Below, in pieces: positions 6,035 through 35,638 of a stretch of 35,638 nucleotides of DNA; the stretch's first letter is position 1, and each line of letters starts with the position of its first letter. Below the pieces are notes generated by a model. It saw nothing but the letters and a program-made list of their open reading frames with translations, was not told the DNA's origin and ran no database searches. Source of the DNA: Paracamarosporium sp. OC-R06-R3 (Eukaryota > Ascomycota > Dothideomycetes > Pleosporales > Didymosphaeriaceae); contig JACVRA010000027.1 of NCBI GenBank assembly GCA_019828545.1, positions 16,894 through 52,531 of the forward strand, read 5' to 3'. The translations under genes and the position numbers were made by a program.

Positions 6035-6050
6035 TAGGCTAGTAAATGGA
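6035..6050 (+). repeat. Left terminal inverted repeat of Z
   Basis: TAGGCTAGTAAATGGA pairs with the complement of 11814-11829, with two differences in 16 bases. The inverted similarity fades into TTAAA-rich subterminal repeats. Confidence 0.8.
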
Positions 6051-11956: not shown

Positions 11957-11961
11957 TCTAC
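11957..11961. repeat. Left target duplication of element 1
   Basis: TCTAC, repeated at 19298-19302. Confidence 0.9.
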
Positions 11962-12512
11962 TATTATTGGGGCTATACGTACCTAATTTAATCTATAATA
12001 AGGTAGTAGAGTTTAATTATAAGTAGGGCCATAAACTTTAGTAATAGAAAGGTAGTTTAATAAAAGAAGTAATAAGAAGTTTAATTAAGTATAGGAGTAC
12101 TTAATAACGTAGTAATATAAAACTAACTATTCTTATATAAAAGAAGTACTTATAATTTAGCTATAAGTTAAGTTAATTATAAAGAATAGGAAAAGTATAA
12201 AGATCCTTTTAAACTATATATTAATCTTTTTATCCTTTAATTTTATTTTAATTTATTCCTACTCCCTCTTGGCTCTATTTAGTAAAGGGAGCACCTAAGT
12301 ACTCTATTATAAAGTATACTTTTTAGTAGAGTACTATTACGTAGTATACTCTATTATTTAGTCTTAGTTTTAATAGATTAGTATTATATAAGCTAGGTTA
12401 ACTTATTTTACTCTATAAGATTTCTTTATTATCTTTATTAGCGTTAAGCCCTTTAGGCTTTTATATATTATTCTTATAGTTTGGCTTCTATTTATTTATT
12501 ATACTTATAATA
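11962..12512 (-). repeat. 3' LTR of element 1
   Basis: Plus-strand reading starts TATTATTGGGG (from TG) and ends CTTATAATA (from CA). Length 551 bp, identical to the partner LTR. Confidence 0.92.
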
Positions 12513-12528: not shown

Positions 12529-12723
12529 AGTTTTTATTTTAAAAGCTTATCTAATTTACTAACTATACTACGTTGTATTATTTAGGTATAAAGGTAGGTA
12601 GTTTTATCTTATTATAACCTCTTTTTTTTTATTTTTATTTACTTAACTATACTAAAAGTTTATCTTTTCTTAACTTAGTATTACTATTGTTGTATTAAAT
12701 AAATTCTTATAGCTAGTATTAAA

Positions 12724-13131
12724 ATACTAACTTCTTATAACTATTATAAAGAGAAGGGTTTAAAATATATAATAGAGTTATTAATAGGTTATTATACTTT
12801 TTATATTTATACTAAATATTATTATAACCTTATTCTGTCCTTAACGGAGTAGTAGGAGATAAAAGAAGAGTAATATTAAATTTCTTTTAATCTTTAAGCT
12901 ACTTACTATTATATCCTTAATCTTAAGGACAAATTAACTACTATTAAAGAAAGAGAGTATTATTATAAGTTAGAAAAGGCTACTTCTATTATAGAGCTTA
13001 AAGAGTTAAAGTATATTATAGAGTTAACTAAGTTATTTTTATTTATTTTTTTAGTTAGTATAGTTACTATTATAGCTCCGTTTTTTAAACCCTTACTATT
13101 TAAGCCCTTATTTAACTTAGACTAGTTATAG
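12724..13131 (+). pseudogene. Convergent plus-strand frame of element 1: cysteine cluster and coiled-coil-like tail
   Basis: The frame (starts equal to 1 modulo 3) runs opposite to pol, between the end of pol and the 3' LTR. It probably began at the codon now ATA at 12724. Near the start it reads TSYNYYKEKGLKY, matching SCxxCKEKGLKC of element 2 with the cysteines turned to Tyr. A second cluster, YYTFYIYT, follows. After about 50 codons comes a Glu/Lys/Leu-rich stretch (EREYYYKLEKATSI, then ELKELKYIIEL) that looks like a coiled coil. Element 2 (27268-27669) and B (24782-25147) carry the same frame, so it is part of the family and not a chance reading. Function unknown; a small DNA- or protein-binding factor is a guess. 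Confidence 0.72.
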
Positions 13132-13245
13132 GCTAATTCTTTCTTCTTTAACCTTTTTAGTTTTCTTTAGGATTTTAATTTAGCTCCTTTAGCTTTAAAT
13201 TTAAGATTATATTTCCTTAAAAGTATACCTTTATATGCTAATACT

Positions 13246-16200
13246 AGAACTTCTTTAGTAGTTTCTTATAATTTATAAGGTTTTCCTTTAGTTCTTACGT
13301 ATTATACTACTTTAGCTATTCTTTTTATAATACTAGGTATTTAAGTTAACTATTAATTTTTTATAGGTTTTTTAATTACTTTAACCTTATATTCTTTATT
13401 TTTTAGTTTTAACTAGGTTTTAATTAGAGCATCTAAAGGTACTAGTTCTAGTAGTAATTTATAAAAGGTATAGTATATTTTAGTTTCTTTAAGTAATTTA
13501 AGCTTATTTATAACTAGTTTTTTATTTTCTAGAATTTTAAAGGGTTCTACTTATAGGTAGTCTAGTTTCTTACTTTACCGTTTAATTTTAAGATTTTTTT
13601 ATAATAGGAAAACTTTGTCCCCCCTTTTAAAAGTTAATTTTTTAATTCTTTACTTATTTATATTCTTAGATGCTAAAAGGGCCTTATAGGCTATTCTTTT
13701 TTATAGGGTTTTATATATTTTCTTTATTTTCTAAGCCTTTTCTTAGACTCCTATAGTAATGCTTTCTATATCCCTTAAGTCTTAATAGGCTACTAACTTA
13801 TACCTATAGTTAACGTAATATAGGGAGTATTCTATAGTACTTAACCTAGTACTATTATATACTAACTATACTATTAGTAGAAGTTTAACTTAATTATCCT
13901 ACTATTTATTTACGTAAAATTATAAATACTACTTTAGTATCTAGTTTATATACTTTATTTATTTATTTATTTATAAGTAGAAGCTTATTAAGAGTTTCTA
14001 GTATATTTCTAAGGTATTAATAAACGTATTTTAATATTTAAACGTAAAGAGCTTATTTCTATTTATAATAATTTCTATTAAAGTATTATACTTTATAAAT
14101 AGTACTTTATCTACCTTATAGGCTAGTTCTTCTACTATAATAAATTCTTTTATAGGTATAAACTTTATTATCTTAGTTAATTAATTAACTATATTAAGTA
14201 TAGTATTATATATTTACTTTAACTTTAATTATAGTAATATTAAGAGCTTTACTATAAAGTCTATTATTATACTTAACTATAGTTAGTCTAGTAGTAGTAA
14301 GGGTTATAGTAACTTATAAAACTTATATCTCTTAAGTTTATTCTTATAATAAATTAAATAGTTGTCTAGTACCTTTTTAACTACCTTTTTAAGCCTAGAT
14401 ATAGTATATTTATTTATAACCTAATATATTATTTTTTTAATGCTAGGGTATTCCTATTCTTTTAACTTATAGAGCTTTTTTACTAAAAAGTTTTCTTATC
14501 TTTTCTTAATAATCTACCTTTACTAGTAGTCCTTTCTATTAAATCCTATTTAATAGAAGTTATATTCCTCTCTTTATTCTTTAAAGAGTCTAGTATAGTC
14601 CTAGAAATTATTTACTTTTAGTCTTTAGTAACTTAAAATAGTTACTTATTACACTTCTATTAGTTATACTTAATATCTTAAGTTTATTTAGTAGTATTAT
14701 TCCTTTAGTTGGTTATATTATAGTATACTATCTTAAACCTTTTTTAATATTATATATTATTTTATAGGTCCTTTTTCTATAAGGTTAGATTTTTAGCTTA
14801 GGATATCTACTACTCCGTTAGACGTTCCTAGTTAATAGTATATTTTAAAGTTAAAATTTACTAAAAATTCTATCTATTATATCTATTATTAGTTTAGTTT
14901 CTTAGTTATAATAAAGCTGGTTAGATTTTAGTAGTCTATTTAAACTTTAATTTAATATAGTATATCTATATATTATACTTCTTATTATTTAAAGGCGTTT
15001 ACTATTGCTAGTAGTTCTTTATTATAAATATTATAATTTAATTCTACTCTTAAGAACTTATATAAATAGTAGAATACTAGTTTCTATTTCTTATCTTTAT
15101 ATAGCTATAAGAGAATTATTCTTAGTATATAGTCTAAAGCGTTTATTTTTATATAAGTCTACCTCTTAAGGTAATGTATTTATAGTAGTAGGTTTATAAA
15201 AAATCTTAATTTTAATTTCTTAAATACTTTTTTTACTTTATTTATAAAGTCTTTCTACTATTTCTTCTTTATAAGATCTATTATTAGCGCTATAATCTTA
15301 GAGTAGTCCTTAATAAACTTTTAATAAAAGTTAATAAACTTTAGAAAGGACTATATATCCTTTATTAACTTAAGTTTCTACTATTTCTATACGGCGGCTA
15401 CCTTTTTTAGGTTTATAAATATACCTTTTCTTAAGATTATAAATCCTAGGTACTCTATTTTAGTAATATAAAATTTATATTTATTTAAATATAAAAGTAA
15501 TCTATACTTCTTTATTTTCTTAAGTACTTTTGTTATATATTCTTAGTACTCTTTTAGGGTTCCTATAGAGTAGATAAGTACGTTATTAAAGTAGACTATA
15601 TAAAATATATTTAAGTATTTATATAGTACCTTATTAATTACTACCTAAAACGTAGTAGGTATATTAGTTAGTCTAAAGAATATAACTATATACTTATATA
15701 GGCTATAATAAGTCTTAAATATAGTTTTCTATTCTTCTTCTTTAACTATTTATATATAGTAATATCTATTACGTATATTAAATTTTATAAATTACTTAGC
15801 TTCTTTAAGCCTATCTATTAACTCTATAATAAGTAGTAGTAGGTATTAGTTCTTTACTATAATATTATTTAGTTATTTATAATTTATATAGAGTTATAGC
15901 TTACTATTCTTTTTTAGTACTTAAAGGATAGGAAATATAGCTAGGCTTTTACTTTTTTAAATAAACTATTGTACTAGGTTTTTACGTAAGTATTCCTATA
16001 ATTTCTTTTCCTAGTCTATTAATATTAGTCTTAGCCGTTTTAGTTGTAGTTTTATATCTACTTTTAAAGGAATTTTATAATCCTACTTTTAGTACTTAAG
16101 TAGGGCCTCTTCTTCTTTTTCTTTAAAGAGTTTTATATACTTCTTATATTTTAGTAGAATTTTTGTTGGCGTAGGTATTACTTAAAGATCTAATCTTTAT

Positions 16201-16700
16201 ACCTATATTACTTTAATATTCTAGAGTTTCTTTTTTATAAGTCTTACTATTCTAGCCCTAGAGATCTCTTAAACTTTATTATTTATTTTAGAAAATACTT
16301 TTTTAGTTTATTCCTTATAGGGCTATCTTACTCTATTAACTACTAATATAGCCTATTTAGCTATAATAGTTTATTTCCTTTAGTTTATAACTAGGTTATA
16401 TTTCTAAAGTTAATTATATTCTATAATTACTTCTACTATTCCTATTTTTAATATAGTAAACTTATGTTAGCTCTTAAATCTCTTAAGGTTTACTAATAGA
16501 AATAGGGTTTCTAGTTATAAATACCCTTTTTTATACTCTTTTAATAGTATACTATCTACTATTTTTAACCTAACTAATTAGTCTTTTTATTAGTAAGGTA
16601 GTCTTAGCCTTTTAACTACGTTTTTAAAGATTAAGTATTCTATTACTCTAAAGTTAATTAATGCCGTTACTTAAAATCCTTTAATTATAATAGACTTGGT
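13246..16700 (-). pseudogene. pol: Pol of element 1: protease, RT, RNase H, integrase, chromodomain (RIP-inactivated)
   Basis: One minus-strand phase (codon first base equal to 2 modulo 3) holds all these landmarks from high to low coordinates. Protease: LIN at 16653-16661 in place of the Asp-Ser/Thr-Gly motif. RT: FRLTNIPTTF-stop at 15645-15677 for FGLTNAPATFQ, and VYFNNVLIYS around 15582-15590, where the FDD box has become FNN. RNase H: INALDYIL near 15141 and ELNYNIYNKELLAIVNAFK down to about 14990. Integrase: DNYLIYYKNK zinc residues near 14360, IIDF with its Asp kept (14259-14261), and ILNIVN where the second Asp is Asn (14184-14186). The GPF region and chromodomain lie at about 13246-13600, with a one-base slip in an A-run near 13370. 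Stops are TAG/TAA at Gln or Trp positions. No activity is possible. Confidence 0.92.
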
Positions 16701-17761
16701 TAGCTATAGGTTTTTATTTAGGTTTTATATAGCTTATTTTACTATTATTATACTCTTACTAGCCTAGCCTTTAGCCTAGTGGCCTTTTAGTTTTTTAACT
16801 AGGCTACTATTATCTACTAGCTTTTAGCCACTTAGATTTTTATATACTAGTATTTATAAATACCTATTACTTAATTATAGTATTTTCCTTCTTTAGTAGG
16901 ATTATTTTCTCTATATTAATAGTAATCTTTTACTAGGCATTCCTATTATTATAGATCTTTATACCCTTGGCTATATAATTTATAGGCTGCTACCTTCTTT
17001 TTTATAAGGTGCCTTAGGTAACCTTTTATTTTATAGTTTCTTTAATTCTCTACTATATAAACTACGTTATACTATAGTAGATACTTTTAAGTATTATATA
17101 TATAGGGAATACTAATAGATTTACTATCTAATTCCTTTAACTATATCTTAGTTATATATTTTTAATTTTAATATATAGGGTAGGTATATAGGTAGTACTT
17201 ATATTATTTTAAGTAGATATACTTCTTACCCTATTTTTCTTTATTATAAATATAGTATAGTTAGACTCTATATTTATAGTTTTTTATTCTTATATAGTCT
17301 TAATTACTAGGTATTTTAGTAATTAATCTTTTTTTTACTTTATAAATATTATAGGCATTCTTATTATAGTATTACTATTTAATTTTATTATAGTTATTTT
17401 CTACTTATACTTATTATATAAGTATTAATATAGTCCCTTACCGTCCTTTAGTCTACTTATAAGTGTCTTATAGTTTAAGTCCTATAATCTTAATCTTTTC
17501 TTAGTAATTAAGGGCTAGGTAGTTTTCTTGTCTATAAATCTAATAGACTTTCTATAGTACCTAATTTATAATCTTATCTTTAATAGTTTTAATTTATATC
17601 TTTTATTATAGGTTACTTATTATTATAACCTTTTAACCTATAGGTTCCTAAAGTTCTTTAGGCTTAGGTTTATAGGGTAGTAGTAGTGTTTTTAGCCTAA
17701 AGTTTATTATCTATACCTTTATAATCTTTACTTATTTTTTATTTTTAGCCTAGTTTTTTAG

Positions 17762-18636
17762 ACAATCTATTTTAAAATGTTTTTTTTTTTATATATTAGG
17801 TATATCCCATTTTAGTAGTATTCCTACCTTTTATTTTATATATTAAGGTCTTTTCCCTTTTTTTTAGAGTAATATTTCTTTTATTTCTAAGCTTTATCTA
17901 CTATAATAACGTTACTATTTTTGTCCTATTATTCCCTTCTTTTGTATATATTAGCTTTTATATTAGGTATTCCTTAAGTATCTTCTCTTTTCTCTTAGCT
18001 TTATTTATATAGTTAGTTATTAATCTTAATTAATACCTTTATTAGATTTTCTAGATCTTTAGGCTTTTTATAATATATTAGTCTATCCTTTATAGATTCC
18101 TTTAGTCTATTATAGTAGACTAATTAAAGTAGGTTGTTATTTTAGTCTATCTTATTTTTTAGATATTTAAATGTAGCGGCGTATTTTCCTACTAATCTAG
18201 TTTACTTTAGGCATTAAATTTATTATTCTATCTACTTTCTTTTATTAACTTCTTTAAATATAATAGTAATCTTTTCCTTAAAGGTCTTCTAGTCTTTAAA
18301 GATTTCCTATATTTTTAAAGAGTAATTTTTAAGTTTTTTGTCTTTTTTTAGATAGTTATCCTCTAATAGTTATATCTATTCTATAGCATCTTCTATTATA
18401 TATATATTAGCTGCCAGGATTTTATTGTAATCTATACTAATCTAGTAGTTATGGGTATATAGTTCTATATATATTAGGAAGGGTTTAAGCTTTAATAATA
18501 CTTTATTAAATAGCTTAGGAATCTTAAAAGTCTCTTAAGCCCTAGACTCCTAGTTTAGTTCCTGTGTCTATAGCTATATAATAACTTATTTTAGCTACTC
18601 CTATATTTATTAAATTATATTGGCCTGTTTGGCCAT
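17762..18636 (-). pseudogene. gag: Gag of element 1 with CCHC zinc knuckle
   Basis: The likely start is the ATG at 18634-18636 (minus strand), reading MAKQAN and followed by a Gln-rich segment. The capsid-like part includes KLFNKVLLKLKPFLIYIELY near 18480, a pattern usual for gypsy Gag. At the C-terminus is a zinc knuckle (about 17762-17803) read YLIYKKK, then HFKIDC, that is CX2CX4HX4C with two cysteines turned to Tyr. A run of 11 A bases inside the knuckle is one base short, so the end is out of phase with the rest. In element 2 the same knuckle is in phase. The nucleocapsid knuckle would bind the element RNA. Confidence 0.8.
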
Positions 18637-18746
18637 TACTATAGCTGTGTTTATTATAGGCCCAGAAGCTGCGCTTCTAGTAGTAGCTTAAAATGCTTAT
18701 AAGCTTAATAGTATTACTATTACTTTTTAACGTTAAGTAGTTAAAG

Positions 18747-19297
18747 TATTATTAGGGCTATATATACCTAATCTAATTTATAATAAGGTAGTAGGGTTTA
18801 ATTATAAGCGGGGCTATAGGCTTTAGTAATAGAAAGGTAGTTTAGTAAAAGAAGTAATAAAAAGCTTAATTAAGTATAAGAGTACTTAATAATATAGTAA
18901 TGTAAAACTAATTATTCTTATATAAAAAAAGTACTTATAATTTAACTATAAGTTAAGTTAATTATAAAGAATAGGAAAAGTATAGAGATTTTTTTAAACT
19001 ATATATTAATCTTTTTATTCTTTAATTCTATCTTAATCTATTCCTGCTCTCTCTTGGCTCTATTTAGTAAAGGGAGCGCCTAGGTGCTCTATTATAAAGT
19101 ATACTTCTTAATAGAGCGCTATTACGTAGTATACTCTATTGTTTAGTCTTAGTTTTAGTAGATTAGTATTACGTAAGCTAGACTAACTTATTTTATTCTA
19201 TAGAATTTCTTTATTATCTTTATTGGCGTTAAGCCCTTTAGGCTTTTATATATTATTCTTATAGTTTGGCTCCTATTTATCTATTATACTTATAACA
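18747..19297 (-). repeat. 5' LTR of element 1
   Basis: Plus-strand reading starts TATTATTAGGG and ends CTTATAACA, keeping the terminal CA. Length 551 bp. It would hold the promoter driving gag-pol leftward. Confidence 0.92.
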
Positions 19298-19302
19298 TCT
19301 AC
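19298..19302. repeat. Right target duplication of element 1
   Basis: TCTAC, identical to 11957-11961. Confidence 0.9.
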
Positions 19303-19908
19303 TTAAAATCTACTTTTATAGGCTACTTATAGGTTATTTTATTATACTTAAACTGGCTATAGCATTTATAATACTATTAAATTAATTTATTTCTATTAGT
19401 ATATACCTTTTTCTTTACCTTCTTTCTATTACTATATACTATAAAGTCCTTTAGAGTAGCTAAACGTAGGCCTTTTTTAGCTATTAAAACTTTTTTATAC
19501 TATATATACTTTCTTTTATATAATTTACGTTATATAGTAGCCTTATTAATAGCTTAAAACTTAGTAATCTATTTTTACGTTAATATTAATTTATATACTA
19601 TTATTACTATGCCCTTTACTATCTTCTTAAAGGTATTAACTATACTAGATAGTAAACTATTTATATACCTCTAAATTCTCTACTTTATAAGTATTAATTA
19701 AGACTTAAATTTTAGAGTATTACTTAGTATTTACAACTACTACGTACTATTATATATAATATAAGGTAATAGAGTACGTAGCCTTATATTAAGCTTTAAT
19801 ATTATAGCTTTTAAATTAAAAGGAACTAATCTAGCGCCTTAAAAGCCTCCTTAAATATTACTTTTAATAATTAAAGTATAAAAAGCTATAATAAAGTAAG
19901 GTAGAAAC
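19303..19908 (-). other. 3' part of transposon X, no motif legible
   Basis: By position this holds the C-terminal tail of the X transposase and the 3' flank, resuming X after the element 1 insertion. I see no recognisable motif. Confidence 0.5.
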
Positions 19909-19983
19909 NNNNNNNNNNNNNNNNNNNNNNNNNNNNNNNNNNNNNNNNNNNNNNNNNNNNNNNNNNNNNNNNNNNNNNNNNNN
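19909..19983. other. Assembly gap of 75 N
   Basis: Seventy-five unknown bases inside transposon X. The true length is not known, so the size of X is approximate. Confidence 1.
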
Positions 19984-20990
19984 TAATATAGTTATATATT
20001 AAATCCTTAGCTTAGTACCTATATACCTTTTTTAAAGGTATAAAATAGCCTATATTAAGTAGCTATAAAAGGTATAATAAATATAAAGGTATATAAAAAG
20101 TAATAATCTTATTATCTTTATAATACTATTAAAATTTAAGTAAGTTATAGCTCTTATAGCCATTAATAATAAGTAAATGTACTATACTAATAATATACTT
20201 CTTTATATACTTATTAAAGTATTTTAATTAATAGAGATTAAGCTTATTTATTATTTAACTATTTTTAGAGACTATAATAACCTAATTATATAATAGATCC
20301 TTCTCTTTATACTAGTTAGAGAGGTAGTACTTACCTTAAAAAATAATAAAGGGTAGAATTATCTACTTTATTATATTAATACTTTAAATAATTATAGTTT
20401 ATTTTTAGTTACTTTACTATATACTCTTTAGTTATCTTTAATACTTAGAGCCTATAACTATTACTCTAGTTAATATTATATCTATTATAAAGCCTAACTT
20501 ATTAAAATTATAGGTATTTTTATTTAGAATACTATACTTGGCTTTAATATTCTTTATAAGTTAGAATTAGCCCTCTATTACCTTAAGATTTTTATAGAGG
20601 GCTTTCTTATAATTATACTTTTAATTAAACTTTACTATAAGTTTTAGTTAATATTTTATAAAATTTATAGTCTACTTTTAGTTAATAGGTCTATAGTATC
20701 GTTTAATAAATAAGGAATTAACTATATCTTTAATAGTAGTAAGCTAAGGCAGGAATCCTTATATATTTAAGTTAAAAATATATTAAATAATTACCTCCTC
20801 TTTTATCTTTAAGAGATTTATTAAGTTAGGTATATAGTTATATTAAAAGGTAGTTTTAGTATATTATTAGCTTAGTATATTTTATATAATTTTATAGATT
20901 ATTATAGTACATTACTATATTAATATTACGTCTTATTAAAGAGCCTAAAGTATAAGCTATAATCTAGCCTCTTTTAACTTAGGTAGTTTA
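19984..20990 (-). pseudogene. Fot1/pogo transposase of X, DD35D catalytic triad mutated
   Basis: The protein would cut and paste X. On the minus strand the N-terminal end reads LPKLKEARL near 20960-20985. The catalytic core is in one phase (first base equal to 1 modulo 3): TYNFNKLGF at 20489-20515, where the family has NFDExGF (first Asp now Asn, 20501-20503); a GSK..R then SIxxSN segment matching VVTGS..R..K..Q.GNRE; LLIINGYKSY with the second Asp now Asn at 20162-20164; and the LQPLD-like block read LLNIGYF with the third Asp now Asn at 20054-20056. Spacing is 113 codons, then 36, that is DD35D, as in Fot1-like elements. All three catalytic Asp codons were GAT preceded by T and are now AAT, the change RIP predicts. 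Confidence 0.93.
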
Positions 20991-21032
20991 TTATATTATT
21001 AAGGTATAATAGTGTACTATTAATAATAGTAT

Positions 21033-21097
21033 ATTTTAGTAAGGGCTTAGTAGAGTAATATACTTACTTATCTAATATACTTACTTATTAAGTACGT
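21033..21097 (-). repeat. Right terminal inverted repeat of X
   Basis: Reverse complement begins ACGTACTTAATAAGTAAG and ends CCCTTACTAAAA. TA at 21098-21099 follows. It is less mutated than the left repeat. Confidence 0.85.
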
Positions 21098-22138
21098 TAT
21101 TCCTTTAAAGTTCCTATAAAGTAAATAAGTATATTATTAAAATAGACTATATAGAATATATTTAAATACTTATATAATATTTTATTAATTAACGCCTAAA
21201 ATATTATAAATATATTAATTAACTTAAAGGATATAACTATATACTTATATAATTTTTATTAAGTTTTAAATATAATTTTTTATTCTTTACCTTTAGTTAT
21301 TTATATATAGTAATATTAATTACGTATATTAAACTTTTTAAACTACTTAACTCTTTTAAGCCTATTTATTAACTTTATAATAAGAAGTAGGGGGTACTAG
21401 TTTTTTATTATAGTATTATTTAGCTATTTATAATTTATATAAAGTTATAGCTTACTATTTTTCTTTAGTATTTAAAGAATTAAAAATATAGCTAGGCTTT
21501 TACTTTTTTAAATAAACTACTTACTTAAGTTCTTTTATAAGTACTCCTATAAATCTTTTTTTTAATTTATTAATATTAACCTTAGCTATTTTAGTTATAG
21601 TTTTATATCTTCTTTTAAAGGTATTTTATAATTTTATTCTTAATATTTTAATAAAGTCTTCTTTTTTTTTTCCTTAAAAAGTTATATATATTCTTTATAT
21701 TCTAGAGTTTATTTTATAGAAGTTTTATTATTTTAATTTTTAAAATTTCTTAAATATTTTTACTTATTTTAAAAAATGTCTTTTTAGCTTGTTCCTTTTA
21801 AGACTATCTTACTTTATTAATTATTAGTATAGCTTATTTAGTTATAATTATTTATTTCCTTTAGTTTATTACTAGATTATATTATTTAAGTTAATTATAT
21901 TCTATAATTACTTCTATAGTTCTTATTTATAATATAATAAATTAGTATTGGCTTTTAAATTTATTAAGGTATACTAGTAGAAATAAGGTTTTTAATTATA
22001 AATACTTTTTTTTATATTCTTTTAATAGTATTTTATTTATTATCTTTAGCCTAACTAATTAGTCTTTCTTTTAGTAAGATAGTTTTAACCTTTTAAATAT
22101 ATCTTTAAAAATTAAGTATTTTATTACTCTTAAGTTAA

Positions 22139-22143
22139 TAAGT
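22139..22143. repeat. Left target duplication of the 204-bp solo LTR
   Basis: TAAGT, repeated at 22348-22352. Confidence 0.85.
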
Positions 22144-22347
22144 TATTACGTCACGGGTAGTAGTAATGTAGACTTAACTTAAAGGAATTAATAATAGATT
22201 ATAAAATAGACAAATTACTAGCTAACTATTTTTATTAGCTCTAGTATAATATAACCCCTTATTACCTAACGTGTCCCGTTGGGGCCTAATAGGCCCCGAT
22301 ATCCCGTATAGGGTGAAAACGAGTACTCTTTACCTGCCTATATAATA
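22144..22347 (-). repeat. Solo LTR of the element F family
   Basis: The reverse complement matches 2877-3080 over all 204 bp. Exact 5-bp duplications (TAAGT) on both sides show a complete insertion that later collapsed to one LTR by recombination. It keeps CACGGG, GTGTCCCGTTGGGGCC and CCTGCC, so it is much less mutated than the surrounding gypsy copy and must be younger. Confidence 0.9.
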
Positions 22348-22790
22348 TAAGTACTATTACTTAAAATTTTTTAATTATAATAGTTTTAATTAGCTATAAG
22401 TTTTTATTTAAGTCTTTTATAGTTTATTTTATTATTATTATATCTTTACTAGTTTAGTCTTTAGTTTAGTAGCTTTTTAGTTTTTTAATTATATTTTAAT
22501 TAAATATTTTACTTTTCTTTAAAAGGTTATAATATATTTCGTTTTATAGTAGTTTTTAATTTATTTAAATTATTTTATTTTTTTTACTTCTTTTATACTA
22601 TACCTAGTATAGTTTTTTATTAAATATTTTTATTTATATAAGTCTTAATATTTTTATTTTAAAGTTTTAATAGTAGTAACTTTTTTTTTTATTAAATATT
22701 TTAGTTATTTTTTTTATAGTTCTTTTAGTTTAGTATTATATAAACTAAATTAATCTATAATAGATACTTTTATAAGTTATATATATATAA

Positions 22791-23109
22791 TATAAAAAGG
22801 GTATTATTTTTTAACTTTATTAACTATTATATTAGTATAGAGTTACTTAAAGCTCTAAGCTTAATATAGCTCTAAATAGAGGCATATAAAAGTATATAGT
22901 TAAAGGATAACCTAGAATAAATTAAATACTTTATAGGCCTAGTATAAAAGAATACTAAAAAGCTATTAAGCTATTTATAATAAAGAGCTGGCTATATAGG
23001 TAGACTTAATCTACGTTATTAAAATTTTATTTATTTAAGCTCCTAATAATTATAGCTCTACTAAGCCACTAGGGCCTAATATAATTAGTAAGTTTTAAGC
23101 CTTATTATA
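22791..23109 (-). repeat. Solo LTR of the element H family
   Basis: Reverse complement runs from TATAATAAGGC to CCCTTTTTATA and matches 4857-5173. It interrupts the homology between G and element 1 (element 1 about 17095-17150). No clear target duplication can be read; about 35 bases of G seem to be missing. Confidence 0.75.
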
Positions 23110-23344
23110 GCTATATTCTTACTATATATTTTTAATTCTAATATAGTAGATATTTTTATATATAATATTTAATCTATTTTAAGTATATATACTATTTAGC
23201 CTAATCTTTTAAGTAGTAGATATAGTATAGTTAAATTTTATATTTATTAATTTATAGTCTTCTATAATATACTTTATAAGTAAGCTAATTACCTAAGTAA
23301 GTTAATTAGAATATTAAGCCCTTACTAAAATATATTATTATTTA

Positions 23345-24048
23345 TAGTATAATATAATACCTTAATAATATAATAAATTATCTAAATTAAAAGAAGCTTA
23401 ATTATAGCTTATACTCTAGACTATTAAATAAGATATAACTTTAACTTAGTAATATACTATAACTATTTATAAAGTCTTTTAAAATATTTTTAATATATAA
23501 TATATTAGAACTACCTTTTAATATAATTGTATACCTAACTTAATAAATCTTTTAAAGATAAAGGAGTAGATAATTATTTAGTATATACTTAATTTAAATA
23601 TATAAAGATTTTTACTCTAGTTTATTACTATTAAAAATATAGTTAACTCTTTATTAGCTAAGTAGTACTATAAGCCTATTAGTTAAAACTAAACTATAAA
23701 CTTTATTAAGTATTAACTAAAGCTTATAATAAAATTTAATTAAAAGTATAACTATAAAAAAGCCCTTTATAAAGATTTTAAGATTATATAAGCTTAGTTC
23801 TAGCTTATAGAAAATACTAAAGCTAAGTATAGTATTTTAAATAATAATATTTATAATTTTAATAAGTTAAACTTTATAATAGGTATAATATTAACTAAAG
23901 TAGTAGTTATAAACTTTAAGTATTAAAAATAACTAAAGAGTATATAGTAAAGTAACTAAAAGTAAACTATAATTATTTAAAATATTAATATAATAAAATA
24001 GATAATTTTACTTTTTATTATTTTTTAGAATAAGTATTACCTCTTTAC
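23345..24048 (+). pseudogene. N-terminal half of a Fot1/pogo transposase (Y)
   Basis: The frame (starts equal to 2 modulo 3 at the core) parallels the X transposase. The N-terminal part begins near 23375 with an LKEA-like segment. The first catalytic block reads IYNFNKLNF at 23849-23875, with the catalytic Asp again Asn at 23861-23863 and the Gly of GF now Asn. The next block, GIILTKVVVINFKY, follows. The second and third Asp lie beyond the insertion of element B. The copy is inactive. Confidence 0.85.
24044..24048. repeat. Probable left target duplication of element B
   Basis: TTTAC just before the LTR of B. Its partner would lie outside the window, so this is inferred from position only. 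Confidence 0.4.
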
Positions 24049-24570
24049 TATTATAGGGTGTACTATATACCTAGTTTAATCTATATTAAAGTAGTAGAGT
24101 TTACTTATAGTAGGGCCTATAGAGCTTTAGTAATAAAAAGTAATTTAATAATAAAAGTTATTAAGCTTTAATTAAGTATTAAGAATACTTAATAATATAT
24201 TAAGAGAAGACTAATTATTCTTATATAAAAGAATTACTTAACTAAAAAGTTAAGATATAATTTAAGTTAACTATAAAAAATAGAAAAAGTATAGAGATTC
24301 TTTTAAATTATATATTAGTTATTCTATCCTTCTACTATTAAGATGTCTTACTAAGAGGAGGTAGTCCTAGGGACTTCCTTAATATATAAAATATTATTAT
24401 ATAAGGTAGTCCTATAAATACCTTATATTTATAAAATATTATTATATAACTTTAGTTAACTTATTCTACCCTATAGGATTTCTTTATTACCTTAATTAGT
24501 ACTAGGCCCTTTAAGCCTTAATACCTTATACTTATTATTTTATAGCTACTTCCTTTTTATACTTGTAATA
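24049..24570 (-). repeat. 3' LTR of element B
   Basis: Starts TATTATAGGGTG and ends CTTGTAATA. It is 522 bp, about 30-40 bp shorter than the LTRs of elements 1 and 2, and contains an internal duplication around AAAATATTATTATATAA (near 24390 and 24430). Confidence 0.85.
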
Positions 24571-24781
24571 TTACCCCCCTATTTAAAGTTTTTATTTTAA
24601 AGACTTGTCTAATTTATTAACTATACTATATTATATTATTTAAGTATAAAGGTAGGTATTTTTATTTTATTATATCCTTTTCCTCTTTATTTTTATCTAT
24701 TTAATTATATTAAAAGCTCTTTATTCTTCTATTATAAGTTATTATTTATATACCTTAAAGGTTTAGTTCTATTCTTTAAAG

Positions 24782-25147
24782 ATGCTAAGAGGTTATAAGT
24801 ATTATATAAAGAATAAGCTTTACTACTTTATAAATATTAAGTCTAGTTACTATATAAAATATATCTCTACCTATATAAAGTATAGTCTTTAGGTTTTAGA
24901 GAAAGAGTAGGATAAGGTTTAGCTTAAGTAAAAGTAAAAGTATTTAAAGCTTCTAGAGTTTAAAGTTAATATAGTATACCTATGCCTTAAACTAGCTTAT
25001 ATTAAAGCTTATAAGTAAAAGTTTACTTATTATAATCTTATAGTTACTAATACTATTAATAGTTTATAAAAGAAGGTTTTAAAGAATATAATTATTAGTA
25101 CTACTTTTATTCTACTACTATTTAAACCCTTAGCTAATTCTAATTAG
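24782..25147 (+). pseudogene. Convergent cysteine-cluster frame of element B
   Basis: This copy starts with a surviving ATG at 24782-24784 and runs to a TAG at 25145-25147 in one phase, with about eight internal stops. It begins MLRGYKYYIKNKLYY, which fits GCxxCxxxxxxC with cysteines turned to Tyr, then SSYYIKYISTYIKYS for the second CX2CX6C. A charged helix-like segment follows (VLEKE, KYLKLLEFKV). Order and spacing match elements 1 and 2 although the residues differ, so the protein diverged between subfamilies while keeping the cysteine pattern. That is what selection on a real protein would leave. Confidence 0.75.
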
Positions 25148-25229
25148 TTATAAATTAATTCTCCCTTCTTTAACTTTTCTAATTTCCTTTATAATTTTAA
25201 TGCTGTTTCTTTAGCTTTAAGTTTTAAAT

Positions 25230-26490
25230 TATACTTCTTTAGAAGTATACTTTTATACGTTTATACTAGAAGTTCTCTAGTAATTTCTTATAGTTTATAA
25301 GGTTTTTCTTTAGTTCTTATATATTATACTACTTTAGCCATCCTTTTTATAATACTAGGTATTTAAGTTAACTATTAATTTTTTATAAGTTCTTAATTTC
25401 TTTAACTTTGTACTTATTGTCTTTTAGTTTTAACTAAGTCTTTATTAAAGTATTTAAAGGTACTAGTTCTAATAGTAACTTATAAAAGGTAGGGTATATT
25501 TTAATTCCTTTTAGTAATTTAAGCTTATTTATAATTAATTTTTTATTTTCTAGAATTTTAAAGGGTCTTACCTATAGATAATTTAGTTTCTTACTTTACT
25601 ATTTAATTTTAAGATTTTTCTATAATAAGAAAACTTTATCTCCTTTTTTAAGAATTAATTTTTTAATCCTTTACTTATTTATATTCCTAAATACTAAAAG
25701 GGCCTTATAAGATATCCTATTTTATAGGGTTTTATATATTTTCTTTATTTTTTAAGCCTTTTTTTAAGCTCCTATAGTAGTGCTTTTTACGTTTCTAGGG
25801 TCTCTATAGGCTACTAACTTATACCTATAGTTAATATAGTATAGTAAATAGCCTATTATACTTAACTTAATACTATTATATATTAACTATACTATTAATA
25901 GGAGTTTAACCTAGTTATTTTACTACTTATTTACGTAGAATTATAGATACTATTCTAGTATTTAATTTATATATTTTATTTATCTATTTATTTAAGAATA
26001 GAAATTTATTAAGAGCTTTCTTATTATTTTTAAAGTACTTATAAACGTGTTTTAGTATTTAAACGTAAAGAGTTTATCTTTATTTATAATAATTTTATTT
26101 AGGGTACTATACTTTAAGAGAAGTGCTCTATTAATTTTATAGGCTAGTTCTTCTACTATTATTAATTTTTTTATAGGTATAAATTTGGCTACTTTTATTA
26201 GTTAATTTATAATGTTTAATATTATATTATATATTTTATTTAATCTTAGTTATAGTAATACTAAAAGCTTTACTATAAAGTCTATTATTATACTTAATTA
26301 TAATTACTTTAGTAGTAGTAGGGGTTATAGTAACCTATAGAGCTTATATTTCTTAAGCTTATTTTTATAATAAGTTAAATAGTTATCTAATATCCTTTTA
26401 ACTACCTCCTTAAGTTTAGGTATAGTATATTTATTTATAATCTAATATATTATTTTTTTAATACTAAAGTATCTCTATTTCCTTAACTTA
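25230..26490 (-). pseudogene. pol: Pol 3' part of element B (integrase C-terminus and chromodomain)
   Basis: Aligns throughout with element 1 at about 13200-14480 on the minus strand: chromodomain near 25240-25400, GPF region near 25560-25640, integrase core near 26150-26290. The reading frame is broken by many stops. It continues at 33861 after element 2. Confidence 0.85.
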
Positions 26491-26495
26491 TAAAG
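26491..26495. repeat. Left target duplication of element 2
   Basis: TAAAG, repeated at 33856-33860. Confidence 0.9.
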
Positions 26496-27056
26496 TATTA
26501 ATGGGGTAATATATACCTAGTTTAATCTATATTAAGGCAGGAGGGTTTACTTATAATAGAGCCATTAGAACTTTAGTAATAAAAAAGTAGTTAATAATAA
26601 AGGATAGGTAAGCTTTAATTATATATTAGAGATACTTAATAATAACTTGTATTAAGGTAAGGCTAACTATTCTTATGTAAAAGAATTACTTACAATTTAG
26701 GGTTAACTAAAGAGTTAAAATACAATCTAAGTTATAAGAGTTAACTATAAAGAAAGGGAAAAGTATAGAGATCCTCTTAGACTATATACTAATTATTTTA
26801 TTCTTTAATTTTATTCTAATTTGTCTATACTCTCTCTACTTTAGGAAAGCACTTTAAGTGCTCTCCTTACTAAGAGAGAGTAGTATTATATAACTTCCTT
26901 AAATACTTTATCTACTAAGAGAGAGTACTATTACGTAACTCTAGTTAACTTATTCTACCCTATAAGATTCCTTTATTACCTTAATTAGCGTTGGGCCTAG
27001 AGGGCCCTAATGCCTTATATATATTATTTTATAGTTATTTTTTTATACTTATAATA
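26496..27056 (-). repeat. 3' LTR of element 2
   Basis: Starts TATTAATGGGGT and ends CTTATAATA. Contains GGGCCTAGAGGGCCC near 26993-27007 and a long hairpin at 26843-26867. Confidence 0.92.
26843..26867. terminator. Hairpin in the element 2 LTR, possible RNA processing signal
   Basis: AGGAAAGCACTT and AAGTGCTCTCCT form 12-bp arms with one mismatch and a one-base centre. The partner LTR has AGGAGAGC and GCTCTCCT at 33642-33649 and 33659-33666. The role is not known; an LTR hairpin could act in transcript ending or packaging. Confidence 0.45.
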
Positions 27057-27072
27057 TTACCCCCCTATTTAT
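27057..27072 (-). other. Polypurine tract of element 2
   Basis: Minus strand reads AAATAGGGGGGTAA against the 3' LTR. Confidence 0.7.
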
Positions 27073-27267
27073 AGTTTTTATTTTAAAAGCTTATCTAATT
27101 TATTAACTATACTACGTTGCGTTATTTAGGTATAAAAGTAGATAGTCTAGTCTTATTATAACCTTTTCCTCTTTATTTTTACCTTTCTAACTATACTAAA
27201 AGTTTAGACCTCTTTAATTAAATACTTTTATTATTATATTGCCTAGATTCTTACTATAGGTATTAAG

Positions 27268-27669
27268 ATGCTAACCCCCTATAGTTGTTATAAAGAGAAG
27301 GGTTTAAAGTGTATAATAAAGTTATTAACTAGTTACTATACTTTCTATATTCGTACATAGTATCGTTGTAATTTAGTATTATTAAAAATAAAGTGGTAAG
27401 AATTAAAGGATGAGTAGTATTATCTTTAGATTAATATTCTTTACCTAAAGGAGTCCTTAACTTATGCTTAACAGGAGTTATTAGAGGCTTAGGAGAAAGA
27501 GTATTATTATAAGTATAAAAACACTACCTCTATAGAGAAGTTAAAAGAGTTAAAGTATATTATTAAACTAGCTAAGTTATCTTTATTTATTTCTTTAGCT
27601 AGTATAATTACTATTATAGCTCTATCTTCTAAATTTTTACTATCTAAGCCCTTATTTAACTTAGGCTAG
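27268..27669 (+). pseudogene. Convergent cysteine-cluster frame of element 2, best-preserved copy
   Basis: Starts at an intact ATG (27268-27270) and stays in one phase for about 134 codons to a TAG at 27667-27669, with about eight internal stops. The N-terminus reads MLTPYSCYKEKGLKC: a CX2CX6C motif in which two cysteines survive. The second cluster reads YTFYIRT-stop-YRC, again CX2CX6C. A long charged region follows (ELKDE, LKESLTYA, QELLEA, EKEYYYKYKN, EKLKELKYIIKLAKL), strongly suggestive of a coiled coil. A Ser/Thr/Ala/Pro-rich stretch ends the frame. It lies downstream of the pol stop and points toward pol. I know of no function. The paired cysteine clusters suggest zinc binding. Confidence 0.78.
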
Positions 27670-27769: not shown

Positions 27770-30700
27770 TGTCTCTGTACGCTTATACTAGAAGTCCTTT
27801 AGTAATTTCTTATAATTTGTAAGGTTTTCTTTTAGTTCCTATGTATTATATTATTCTAGCTATCCTTTTTATAATACTAGGTACTTAAGTTAACTATTAA
27901 TTTTCTATAGGTTTTTAATAGCTTTAACCTTATACTTATTGTCTTTTAGTTTTAACTAGGTTTTAATTAAAGCCTTTAGAGGTACTAGTTTTAATAGTAA
28001 TTTATAAAAGGTTAAGTAAATTTTAATTCCTTTAGGTAATTAAAGCTTATTTATTATTAGTTCTTTATTCTCTAGAATTTTAAAGGGTCCTACCTATAGG
28101 TAATCTAGTTTTTTACTTTACCTTTTTATTTTAAGATTTTTTTATAATAGGAAAACTTTATTCCCTTTTTTAAAGGTTAGTTTTTTAATCCTTTATTTAT
28201 TTACGTTCCTAGATATTAAGAGGGCCTTATAGGATATCCTATCTTATAAGACTTAATATATTTTCTTTATTTTCTAAGCCTTTTCTTAAGCTTCTATAGT
28301 AATGCTTTCTACGTCTCTTGAGTCCTAATAAGTAACTAGCTTATATCTATAATTAGTGTAGTAGGGTAAGTATTCTGTTATACTTAATTTAGTACTATTA
28401 TATACTAACTATATAGTTAGTAGGAGTTTAACCTAGTTATCCTACTATTTATTTACGTAAAATTGTAGGTATTATTTTAATATTTAATTTATACATTCCG
28501 TCTATCCATTTATTTATAAATAGAAACTTATTAAGAGCTTTTTATATATTCCTAATATATTTATAAACGTGTTCTAGTATTTAGATATAAAGAGTTTATC
28601 TCTTTCTATAATTATTTCTATTAGGGTTTTATACTTTATAAAGAGTACTTTATCTACTTTATAAGCTAATTCCTTTACTATTATAGATTTTTCTATAGGT
28701 ATAAACTTTACTACTTTAGTTAATTAATCTACTATATTAAGTATAGTATTATATATTTATTTAGACTTTAGTTATAGTAATATTAAAAGCTTTATTATAA
28801 AGTTTATTATTATACTTAACTATAGTTAGTCTAGTAGGGGTAGAGGTTATAATAACCTATAAGGCTTATATCTTTTAAGCTTATTCTTATAATAGGTTAA
28901 ATAGTTGTCTATTACCTTTTTTACTATCTTCTTAAGTTTAAAGATAGTATATTTATTTGTGATTTAGTATATTGTTTTTTTAATACTAGAGTAATCTTAT
29001 TTCCTTAACTTATAGAGCTTTCTTATTAAAAAGTCTTCTTAGTCTTTTTATATAATCTACCTTTGCTAGTAGTCCTTTCTCTTAAACTTTATTTAGTAGA
29101 AGTAATATTCCTCTCTTTATTTATTAAAGAGTCTTATATAGTCTTAAAAGTTATATACTTTTAATCCTTTATAGTTAAGTAGAACTGCCTACTATACTTC
29201 TATCTAATATACGTAGTATTTTAAGTTTATTTAATAGTATAGTTCTTTTAGTTAATTATACTATAAGGTACTATTACTTACTACTTTTAGTAATATAGTT
29301 TATACCTTAAGTTTCTTTTCTATAAGGTTTAATCTTTAGCTTAGGGTATCTACTACCCTATTTAATGTTTCTAGTTTATAGTAGATTTTAAAGTTAAAGT
29401 TTATAAAAAACTCTATTTATTATACTTAGTATTAATTAAGTTTCTTTATTATAGTAAAGCTTATTAGATTTTAGTAGTCTATTTAAACTTTTATCTAGTA
29501 TAGTATACTTATATACTATACTTTCTATTATTTAAAAGTATTTACTACTCTTAGTAGTTCCTTATTGTAAATATTATAGTTTAGTTCTACCCCTAAGAAC
29601 TTTTAAGAGTAGTAGAACACTAGTCTCTATTTTCTATCTTTATATAGTTATAAAAGAATTACTTCTAGTGTACGGTCTAAAGCGTCTGTTTTTAAGTAGG
29701 TTTTCTACCTTAGGTTATACATCTATAATAACGGTCCTTTAAGGAATCTTCTTTTAAGTTTCTTAAATACTTCTTTTACTTCCTTTATAAGGCCTTTCTA
29801 TTAATCCTTTTTTATAAGATTAGTTATTAGGGCTATAACCTTAGAGTAGTCCTTAATAAACTTTTAATAGAAGTTAGTAAACTTTAGAAAGAACTATATA
29901 TCTTTTACTAACTTAAGTTTCTACTAATCCTATATAGTAGCTATCTTTTTTAGATTTATAAATACGCCTTTCCTTAAGATTACAAATCTTAGGTACTCTA
30001 TTTTAATAATATAAAATTTATATTTTTCTAGATAAAAAAGTAATTTATACTTTTTTATTTTTTTAAGTACTTTTTTTATATACTCCTTATATTCTTCTAG
30101 AGTTCCTAAGGAGTAGATAAGTACGTTATTAAGGTATACTATATAAAATACATTTAAGTACTTATATAGTACTTTATTAATTAGCGCTTAAAATATAGTA
30201 GGTATATTAATTAGTCTAAAGAATATAACCGTATACTTATATAGGCTATAGTATATTCTAAATATTATTTTTTATTTATACCTTTCTACTATTTATATAT
30301 AGTAATACCTATTATATATATTAAATTTTATAAACTACTTAGCTCCTCTAAGCCTATCTATTAGCTTTATAATAAGTAGTAAGGAATATTAATTCTTTAT
30401 TATAGCCTTATTTAGCTATCTATAATCTATATAAAGTCTTAGCTTACTATTTTTCTTTAGTACCTATAAGATAGAGAACGTAGCTAGACTCTTACTTTTC
30501 TAAATAAATTATTTTACTAGATTCTTTTATAGGTATTCTTATAATTCCCTTTTCTAGTCTACTAATATTAGCCTTAGCTATTTTAGTTATAGTTTCGTAC
30601 CTTCCTCTAAAGGTATCCTATAATCCTATTTCTAGTATTTTAGTAAAGCCTTTTTTTTATTTTCTTTAAAGAGTTCTATATACTCTTTATATTCTAGTAG

Positions 30701-33186: not shown

Positions 33187-33294
33187 AACTATAGCTATAT
33201 TTGTCGTTGGCCTAGAAGCCGTGCTTCTTACGGCGGCCTAAAACGCTTATAAGCTTAATAGTATTACTATATTTCTAACGTTAAATAGTTAAAG

Positions 33295-33855
33295 TATTAA
33301 TAGGGTAATATATACCTAGTCTAATTTATACTAAGGTAGAAGGGTTTACTTATAACGGAGCCATTAAGGCTTTAGTAATAGAAAAGTAGTTAGTAATAAA
33401 AGATAAATAAGCTCTAATTATATATTAGAAATACTTAATAATAACTTATATTAGAATAAGGCTAACTATTCTTATATAAAAGAATTGCTTATAATTTAGG
33501 GTTAATTAAAGAGTTAAAATACAATCTAAGTTATAAGAGTTAACTATAAAGAAAAGGAAAAGTATAGAAATCCTCCTAGACTATATATTAGTTATTCTAT
33601 CCTTTAATTTTATCTTAATTTATTTATACTCTCTCTACTTTAGGAGAGCACTCTAAGCGCTCTCCTTACTAAGAGAGAGTAGTATTATATAACTTTCTTA
33701 AATGCTCTATCTACTAAGAAAGAGTACTATTATATAACCTTAGTTAACTTATTCTACCCTATAAGATTCCTTTATTGCCTTAATTAGCGTTGGGCCTAGA
33801 GGGCCCTAATGCCTTATATATATTATTCTATAGTTGTTTCTTTATACTTATAATA
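33295..33855 (-). repeat. 5' LTR of element 2
   Basis: Starts TATTAATAGGGT and ends CTTATAATA, 561 bp, same length as the partner. Confidence 0.92.
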
Positions 33856-33860
33856 TAAAG
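33856..33860. repeat. Right target duplication of element 2
   Basis: TAAAG, identical to 26491-26495. Confidence 0.9.
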
Positions 33861-35638
33861 CTTTTTAACTAAAAAGTCTTTTTATTCCTTTTAAATTATT
33901 TATTTTTACTAATAGTCTTTTTTATTAAATTCTATTTAATAAAAATTATATTCCTTTCTTTATTCTATAGAGAGTTAGACGTAGTCTTAGAAGTTATTTA
34001 CTTTTAAGTTTTAATATTATATAGTAGTTACCTTTTATATCTTTATTTTTATTATTTTCCTATTTAAGTTTATTTAATGGTATTATTTCTTTGGCTAGTT
34101 ATATTAGAGTATATTATTTTAAGCTATTTTTAGTATTATATATTATTTTAAGGACTTCTTTTTTATAAGATTTAACTTTTTACTTAGGGCATCTACCGCT
34201 CCGTTAAACGTTCCTAGTTAATAGTAGATTTTAAAGTTAAAATTTATAAAAAGTTTTATCTATTATATTTATTATTAGTTTAATTTCTTAGTTATAGTAA
34301 AGCTTATTAGGTTTTAGTAATTTATTTAGACCTTAATTTAATATAGTATATCTATATACTATACTTTTTATTACTTAAAGGCATTTACTATTATTAGTAG
34401 TTTCTTATTATAAATATTATAGTTTAGTTCTACTTTTAAAAACTTTTAAAAATAGTAGAATACTAGTCTCTATTTCCCGTCTTTATATAGCTATAAAAGA
34501 ATTATTTTAAGTATATAGTTTAAAGTATCTATTTCTATATATATTCTTTTCTTAAGATTATATATTTATAATAGTGGCTTTTCTAGGAATCTTTTTTTAA
34601 GTTTTTAAAATACTTTTTTATCTTTTTTTTTAAAGTAGTTTTATTAAACCCCTTTCTTTATAAGTTCTATTAATAGTACTATTATTTTAAAGTAGTCCTT
34701 AATAAACTTTTAATAAAAGTTAGTAAACTCTAGGAAGAATTAAATATCCTTTATTAACTTAAGTTTTTATTATTTTTATACGGCGGCTACCTTCTTTAGG
34801 TTTATAAATATACCTTCCCTTAAAATTATAAATCCTAGGTACTTAGTTTTAGTAATATAAAATTTATACTTTTTTAAATAAAGAAGTAGTCTATACTTCT
34901 TTATTTTTTTAAGTACTTTCTTTATATATTTCTAGTACTCCTCTAGAGTTCCTATAGAGTAGATAAGTATATTATTAAGATAGGCTATATAAAATACATT
35001 TAAATATTTATATAGTACCTTATTAATTAATACCTAAAATATTATAAGTATATTAATTAATTTAAAGGGTATAACCGTGTACTTATATAATTTATATTAA
35101 GTCCTAAATATAGTTTTCTATTCTTTACCTTTAGCTATTTATATATAGTAATATTTATTATATATATTAAATTTTATAAACTACTTAGCTCCTCTAAGCC
35201 TGTCTATTAATTCTATAATAAGTAGTAAGGGGTATTAGTTTTTTATTATAGTATTATTTAACTATTTATAATCTATATAGAGCTATAGTTTATTATTTTT
35301 CTTAAATACCTAAAGAATTAAAAATGTAGCTAGGCTTTTACTTTTTTATATAAACTATTTACTTAGGTTCTTTTATAAGTACTCCTATAGCTCCTTTTTT
35401 TAATCTATAAATATTAGCCTTAGCTATTTTAATTATAGTTTTGTACCTTCTTTTAAAGGTATTCTATAATTCTATTCTTAGTATTTTAGTAAGGCCTTCT
35501 TTTCTTTTTCCTTAAAGAGTTCTATATACTTCTTATATTTTAATAGAATATTCTTAAGTATAGGTATTACCTAAAGATTTAATTTTTATACTTATATTAC
35601 TTTTATATTGGTATAGGTAGTTAAAAGGTCTATACTAG
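33861..35638 (-). mobile_element. Element B, right segment: integrase, RNase H and RT part
   Basis: Resumes B right after element 2 and aligns with element 1 at about 14470-16250. The minus strand carries the RNase H region (near 34515) and the RT box read YLNNILIYS (LNN at 34971-34979, in place of LDD). The segment runs to the end of the window, so protease, gag and the 5' LTR of B lie beyond it. The last 30-40 bases no longer resemble element 1 and may start another insertion. Confidence 0.87.

What the first reader, a model, noticed from the sequence alone, without database searches (positions are those of the whole stretch)
12724..27669. Family A retrotransposons carry a convergent gene with a double CX2CX6C cluster and a coiled-coil-like tail
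Three copies (12724-13131, 24782-25147, 27268-27669, all plus strand) have the same frame at the same place: after pol, before the polypurine tract, on the opposite strand. Two copies keep an ATG at the expected start. The cysteine pattern is shared, while the residues between cysteines differ between B and elements 1 and 2. Stops are of the RIP type. A random antisense frame would not keep cysteine spacing across diverged copies. I recall small Cys-rich coiled-coil hypothetical proteins being frequent in ascomycete proteomes, but cannot verify a match. Such a gene could regulate the element or target it to chromatin.
Basis: partly seen in the sequence, partly recalled or inferred. Interest (0 to 1): 0.75.

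Follow-up and report, generated by a model that had tools for sequence, protein, structure and literature searches.

The report
Swappable antisense gene in fungal retrotransposons
Worn-down copies of a fungal jumping element carry a small gene that runs against the element's main genes, probably makes a zinc-binding protein, and exists in sharply different versions on otherwise near-identical elements, which hints that it may control the element's own switch.

Summary
In the whole window the pattern [C/Y]x2[C/Y]x6[C/Y]x8[C/Y]x2[C/Y]x6[C/Y] occurs three times in six frames, exactly at the three stated places; simulated sequence gives 0.15. Cys is mostly inferred in the window (TAY), but a lightly mutated relative in the same genome, C290, shows all six cysteines. 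Of 29 near-whole pol 3' ends that one search scored, 29 have this ORF region beside them. RIP-blind (purine/pyrimidine) changes are fewest at codon position 2, gaps between classes are multiples of three, stops are TAA/TAG.

[quoted passage not shown] New here: the gene is a cassette. Classes A and B have 0 of 227 fixed RY differences in the leader and 0 of 482 in the pol end, but 87 of 316 in the gene. Within the window's elements the other strong divergence peak is a repeat block in U3, whose type follows the gene's subtype in 27 of 27 copies tested. Best guess: a DNA-binding regulator of the element's own LTR. Zinc binding, DNA binding and expression are inferred. The coiled-coil claim was not supported.

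The parts
12724..13125 (+). Element 1: convergent ORF (class A), ATA at the start position, six C/Y columns at codons 5,8,15,24,27,34, terminal TAG
24782..25147 (+). Element B: convergent ORF, class B version, ATG kept
27268..27669 (+). Element 2: convergent ORF (class A), ATG kept, Cys at codons 7, 15 and 34
12664..12723 (+). Start of the exchanged segment upstream of the ORF: RY divergence to class B is already high in the last 60 nt before the ATG (19 of 55 fixed differences)
12254..12399 (.). Element 1: approximate variable U3 block of the 3' LTR (g1-like type)
24359..24448 (.). Element B: two 45-nt tandem units in U3
26798..26943 (.). Element 2: variable U3 block (g2 type, repeat units with inverted symmetry best seen in C109)
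11960..12512 (-). Element 1, 3' LTR (approximate ends)
18747..19297 (-). Element 1, 5' LTR (approximate ends)
26491..27057 (-). Element 2, 3' LTR (approximate ends); element 2 is nested in element B
33290..33856 (-). Element 2, 5' LTR (approximate ends)
24049..26495 (-). Element B, 3' part (LTR, leader, convergent ORF, pol 3' end), interrupted by element 2
33854..35638 (-). Element B, continuation of pol beyond element 2, to the window end
14859..15164 (-). Element 1, RNase H domain (PF17917, 43.5 bits against a cut-off of 24.8, stops read through by the tool)
29435..29710 (-). Element 2, RNase H domain (PF17917, 41.5 bits, stops read through by the tool)
29930..30187 (-). Element 2, stop-free reverse transcriptase piece (PF00078, E 0.0043, below the curated cut-off)

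Best explanation
The frame is the remains of a small accessory gene of a Ty3/gypsy LTR retrotransposon, placed tail-to-tail with pol between pol and the 3' LTR. Shown: position, orientation, presence beside every pol 3' end scored, signs of past coding constraint, and three divergent versions beside near-identical pol 3' ends (B and C homologous by sequence; A joined to them by place, Cys spacing and alignment only). Inferred: its N-terminus folds around zinc with six cysteines, much like a fungal binuclear zinc cluster; the charged tail pairs or multimerises; it is transcribed from the leader or the LTR in antisense; and it binds the class-specific repeat units in the element's own U3 to repress or time transcription. 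Recombination moves the gene, and perhaps its U3 sites, between element lineages as modules. No copy examined here has an intact frame; RIP explains the stops.
For: Exact C/Y pattern only at the three places. Six real cysteines in C290. ORF region beside 29 of 29 near-whole pol ends scored: A 21 (one cut by a contig end), B 2, C 6. Fixed RY differences by codon position: A-B 25/20/42 of 101/113/102 (p 0.004), B-C 19/13/32 of 118/121/116 (p 0.008); position 2 lowest in 5 of 6 (not independent) comparisons and tied lowest in the sixth; the leader is flat, A-C 14/12/12 and B-C 16/13/12. Gaps that separate classes are 3, 6, 27 and 30 nt. C-B protein match E 6.7e-14. Cassette edges, A-B: 0 of 227 in the leader (C325 left out), 19 of 55 at -60..0, 87 of 316 in the ORF, 0 of 482 in the pol end. 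The U3 block, clustered on its own, follows the ORF subtype in 27 of 27 copies at cuts 0.25-0.5, holds 45-47 nt tandem units or an inverted repeat, and is with the ORF the strong divergence peak of the window's elements.
Against: No Pfam, PDB or protein-database match. The host Zn2Cys6 model does not score it, and class C has X7 where the classic motif has X6. Queries of class B or C do not find class A, so A's homology to them rests on place and alignment. A-C (p 0.29), g1-g2 (0.07) and el1-g2 (0.06) codon-position tests are not significant at 0.05. In a six-frame substitution score a minus frame beat the ORF frame in g1-g2 and in B-others; the ORF frame won in the other two of four. Helix periodicity failed. 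Codon 51 is a stop in 20 of 20 class A copies, and codons 24, 38, 44, 48 and 80 are stops in 5 of 5 class C copies counted (C100 left out), codon 24 inside the Cys region; these must be read as RIP of Gln or Trp codons. C107 and C100 have gaps of 1 and 2 nt. In the multi-copy profile divergence rises again to 0.21 at +1260..+1440 in pairs with class B, though at this place the window's own elements stay at or below 0.07. U3/ORF agreement rests on about five lineages, was seen after the fact, and at a coarser cut A and B U3 blocks merge. Class B is two copies. No expression data.
Confidence: 0.5

Rival explanations
1. It is a real antisense accessory protein of the brtn kind, but works elsewhere than on the LTR (for example nuclear import, RNA binding or integration targeting); divergence and U3 co-variation only reflect module shuffling and fast evolution of non-gag-pol parts.
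For: Same place and strand as brtn and plant aORF-3R genes, whose function is unknown. Class C differs from A in leader and LTR as well as in the ORF, so linkage is partly plain descent.
Against: A and B share the leader between U3 block and ORF with 0 of 227 fixed RY differences, yet differ at both ends.
Confidence: 0.35
2. Only the antisense RNA matters (double-stranded RNA, silencing or interference); the protein is incidental.
For: A plant review allows a dsRNA role for such antisense transcripts. Every copy examined has in-frame stops.
Against: Codon-position bias, in-frame gaps and kept Cys spacing point to protein-level selection.
Confidence: 0.07
3. The frame is a captured host zinc-cluster gene fragment (transduction), decaying without function.
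For: The genome has at least 150 Zn2Cys6 matches (150 scored of 396 candidates).
Against: ORF region beside 29 of 29 scored pol ends and in three diverged classes; no Pfam PF00172 score; an own-genome search with a class C protein finds only class B and C element copies plus one weak hit at E 0.09. A similar C/Y spacing is seen by eye in a second Ty3/gypsy family.
Confidence: 0.05
4. Chance antisense frame in AT-rich RIP DNA, with Tyr codons mistaken for Cys.
For: Four of six columns are TAY in 22 of 22 class A and B copies.
Against: 0.15 pattern matches expected against 3 seen; real Cys in class C; codon-position bias.
Confidence: 0.03

Closest known systems
brtn, antisense gene of Boty-like Ty3/gypsy elements of Botrytis cinerea and Sclerotinia (Zhao et al. 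2011, Virology; paper not held, seen only as cited in passages of PMC7264820, PMC8365987, PMC4227169, PMC5987419)
   Same: Antisense, between pol and 3' LTR, fungal LTR element
gene23 of maize Grande and related plant aORF-3R genes (PMC7264820, passages seen)
   Same: Antisense, pol to 3' LTR, kept in most copies; Grande product nuclear and made from its own promoter
   Different: Plant elements; no Cys cluster mentioned in the passages seen
TRP28 antisense ORFs of Retand elements (PMC11963269, passages seen)
   Same: Antisense ORFs with TRP28 in 97% of clusters, predicted DNA binding, regulatory role proposed
   Different: TRP28 domain, much longer region, plants
Fungal Zn2Cys6 binuclear cluster (PF00172; spacing rule recalled)
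   Same: Two CX2CX6C halves joined by X8 in classes A and B, N-terminal
   Different: No Pfam score; X7 in class C; lacks the usual basic stretch (recalled)
HBZ, the antisense protein of HTLV-1 (name and bZIP nature recalled; a passage of PMC11963269 describes an HTLV-1 antisense product as nuclear)
   Same: Antisense regulator read from the 3' end of a retroelement
   Different: bZIP, not Cys6; an analogy, not a relative

Membership tests
aORF-3R (antisense accessory ORF between pol and 3' LTR) | Lies between pol and 3' LTR | tested here: met
aORF-3R (antisense accessory ORF between pol and 3' LTR) | Antisense to gag-pol | tested here: met
aORF-3R (antisense accessory ORF between pol and 3' LTR) | Present in most copies | tested here: met
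   29 of 29 near-whole pol ends among the 36 matches; one cut by a contig end
brtn (Boty) | Sequence homology to BRTN | not testable with these tools
   Paper not held; no BRTN sequence seen in any call
Zn2Cys6 (PF00172) | Spacing CX2CX6CX5-12CX2CX6-8C (recalled) | tested here: inconclusive
   Met by C/Y columns in A and B; class C has X7
Zn2Cys6 (PF00172) | Score against the Pfam model | tested here: not met
   0 families for 4 pieces of classes A and B and for 4 class C queries from three copies
Ty3/gypsy element | RT and RNase H of the Ty3 type | tested here: met
   PF17917 over the cut-off at element 1, element 2 and B; RT piece below the cut-off
Chromovirus branch | C-terminal chromodomain | tested here: inconclusive
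   Chromodomain-like letters in the pol end by eye, but no PF00385 hit at any family A place up to E 1
Coiled-coil protein | Helical periodicity of the tail | tested here: not met
   Not above shuffles in 5 of 5 copies

The most novel reading that the evidence does not exclude
The antisense gene and the U3 repeats form matched specificity pairs: a Cys6 protein that binds only its own class's U3 units and controls that class of element, so that classes behave like phage immunity groups and spread by swapping the pair onto a common gag-pol backbone.
Probability: 0.18. Interest if true: 0.85.

Novelty: new variant of a known kind. Interest (0 to 1): 0.55.

Why it matters
Antisense accessory genes of LTR retrotransposons have been known for years without a function. 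Old, divergent versions of one such gene beside near-identical pol, paired with class-specific U3 repeats, turn the question into a direct test: does each protein bind its own LTR? If so, retrotransposons would have repressor-and-operator style self-control and exclusion groups, as temperate phages do.

Tried and rejected
Rejected: reading the region on the minus strand (searches gave frames full of stops). Rejected: a shared CTAG giving both genes' stops; the pol-like frame that ends there is not the chromodomain-like frame, so I do not claim overlapping stops. Not run: Rfam, and the phage, plasmid and E. coli collections, judged irrelevant. Structure prediction was not run: its stated rule covers window sequences and loci from other tools, and the window copies carry Tyr for Cys and stops, so a model would mean little. 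Searches that found nothing: Pfam on pieces, PDB (65), 5.8 billion proteins twice (36: 3328 candidates; 66: 15 candidates), IMG/VR (85). Four stretches beside less mutated RNase H matches (L076-L079) showed no real-Cys double cluster on either strand. A second family (L085-L088) shows C/Y spacing by eye, not tested further. Of the paper searches, whose listings I saw, none pointed to a description of a Cys cluster or of exchanged classes in such a gene; I read passages of six papers only, and the library lacks most subscription papers.
Full report
Observation. Window coordinates are on the plus strand; the elements run on the minus strand. A stop-free RT piece and an RNase H piece lie on minus, and RNase H of element 1, element 2 and B passes the Pfam cut-off in the genome search, stops read through by the tool. 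The claimed frames lie on plus between the pol 3' end and a PPT-like G run and LTR. The exact C/Y spacing is found three times in six frames of the window, at 12736, 24794 and 27280, and nowhere else; 20 simulated sequences gave a mean of 0.15. In 22 copies of classes A and B only codons 15 and 34 ever show Cys (5 of 22 each); codons 5, 8, 24 and 27 are TAY in all 22.

Copies elsewhere in the genome. DNA and protein searches of the 43.1 Mb genome gave 26 places; 22 were near-whole and used, 4 were left out of the first alignment (C42, C302 and C76 partial; C336 too diverged). Searching with the pol 3' end gave 36 matches, of which 29 are near-whole (the tool calls its counts lower bounds). All 29 have the ORF region beside them: 21 class A (C42 cut by its contig end), 2 class B, 6 class C. 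C107 (class B) and C100 (class C) have small frame-breaking gaps. Five of the six class C copies were found this way, C336. C290 shows six un-mutated cysteines as CX2CX7CX8CX2CX6C; all class C cells in those columns are TGY or TAY. Class C and window element B match as proteins at E 6.7e-14, 41% identity. Class B or C queries do not find class A; I join A to them by place, start and stop position, spacing and alignment.

Coding constraint. RIP makes only transitions (established knowledge), so I counted purine/pyrimidine differences; 'fixed' means at least 80% of each group in one class. Fixed differences by codon position 1/2/3 are: A-B 25/20/42 of 101/113/102 (p 0.004), B-C 19/13/32 of 118/121/116 (p 0.008), A-C 24/22/30 of 99/114/100 (p 0.29), g1-g2 19/8/18 of 122/125/122 (p 0.07), el1-g1 4/4/12 of 125 each (p 0.04), el1-g2 18/8/20 of 130/133/130 (p 0.06). 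These six share copies and are not independent. In the leader the counts are flat: A-C 14/12/12, B-C 16/13/12. Gaps between classes are multiples of three; single copies have a 1-nt (C107) and a 2-nt (C100) gap. In-frame stops are TAA and TAG only in the first 120 codons of the 22 class A and B copies, and at several stop columns other copies keep Gln, Trp or Arg codons. Against this, a six-frame substitution score favoured a minus frame in two of four comparisons, and codon 51 in class A and codons 24, 38, 44, 48 and 80 in class C show no surviving sense codon.

Cassette. Class A and B elements share the leader (0 of 227 fixed RY differences at -330..-90, C325 left out) and the pol end (0 of 482 at +405..+900), yet differ at 19 of 55 sites in the 60 nt before the ATG and 87 of 316 in the ORF. 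Third positions of the ORF are among the diverged sites, so fast amino-acid change alone does not explain it; an exchange with an older lineage does (inference; class B is two copies). Class C shares the pol end (1 of 386) but differs in leader (38 of 206), ORF (76 of 313) and LTR. Within the window, the profile of elements 1, 2 and B has two strong peaks: the U3 block, 12240-12480 (0.09-0.24), and the ORF with its upstream edge, 12600-13080 (0.04-0.36; elements 1 and 2 differ strongly only in the 12840 bin); the rest is at or below 0.16, mostly 0.01-0.07. In the multi-copy profile a further rise, to 0.21, appears at +1260..+1440 in pairs with class B and within g2; I did not resolve it, and the window's own elements stay at or below 0.07 there.

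U3 repeats. The U3 block holds 45-47 nt tandem units (C109, C237, element B) or an inverted repeat (C290). Clustering it separately from the ORF gives, at cuts 0.35-0.5, {g1 and el1}, {g2}, {B}, {C, five copies} and {C100}; at 0.25-0.3 el1 stands alone. No cluster mixes g1, g2, B and C in 27 copies tested of 28; C325 was left out because its flanking LTR looks like that of the head-to-head neighbour C325b. At a coarser cut of 0.55 the A and B blocks merge. This was noticed after seeing the profile, and rests on about five lineages.

Mechanism. A Cys6 N-terminus, nuclear antisense products in other retroelements, and matched variation in ORF and U3 make a self-regulating DNA-binding protein the most likely function. 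The steps 'binds zinc', 'binds U3' and 'is transcribed' are inferred. Zn2Cys6 membership fails on Pfam, though the layout resembles it. Coiled coil is not supported. The chromodomain is unproven.

Known context. [quoted passage not shown] PMC11963269; PMC4227169; PMC8365987; PMC5987419). In a survey of fungal LTR elements the word antisense does not occur in the main text (PMC3248453, word search). Zhao et al. 2011 was not held. So the gene is a new variant of a known kind; the exchanged classes and the U3 pairing are what I did not find described in the searches listed under Tried and rejected.

Noticed in passing
L085-L088 (contigs C233, C84, C107, C13): A second, related Ty3/gypsy family has an antisense frame near its pol end with YX2YX6YX9YX2YX6Y spacing by eye (clearest in L085 and L086); all four copies are heavily mutated.
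   Followed up: partly
G000 C325:167,600-169,150 (L032, L083): A class A and a class C antisense ORF stand head-to-head around one stretch that looks like an LTR of the class C type.
   Followed up: partly
window 20308-21152 and 23220-24055: An 845-base inverted repeat (82%) flanks stretches at 21098-23266 that match pol and upstream parts of elements 1 and 2.
   Followed up: no
window 5144-6036: A further pol fragment of the family, 85% like 34043-34937; no match to the C/Y pattern of the convergent ORF near it.
   Followed up: no
L037 (C109) 1053-1161: Two to three units like AGCGCTCTCTCCGCCAAGGGAGAGCG...TTACGT with inverted symmetry in U3; by eye many copies of the other classes keep TTACGTA- or TTATATA-like ends at this place.
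   Followed up: partly
class C loci L081, L082 upstream of the ATG: The frame is open (L082) or nearly open (L081) for about 30 to 40 codons further upstream, with another ATG; class A copies have a stop about 7 codons upstream in those looked at.
   Followed up: no
L076 1252-1494, minus strand (C297): An 80-codon open frame downstream of a less mutated Ty3/gypsy element of another family, without a Cys cluster.
   Followed up: no
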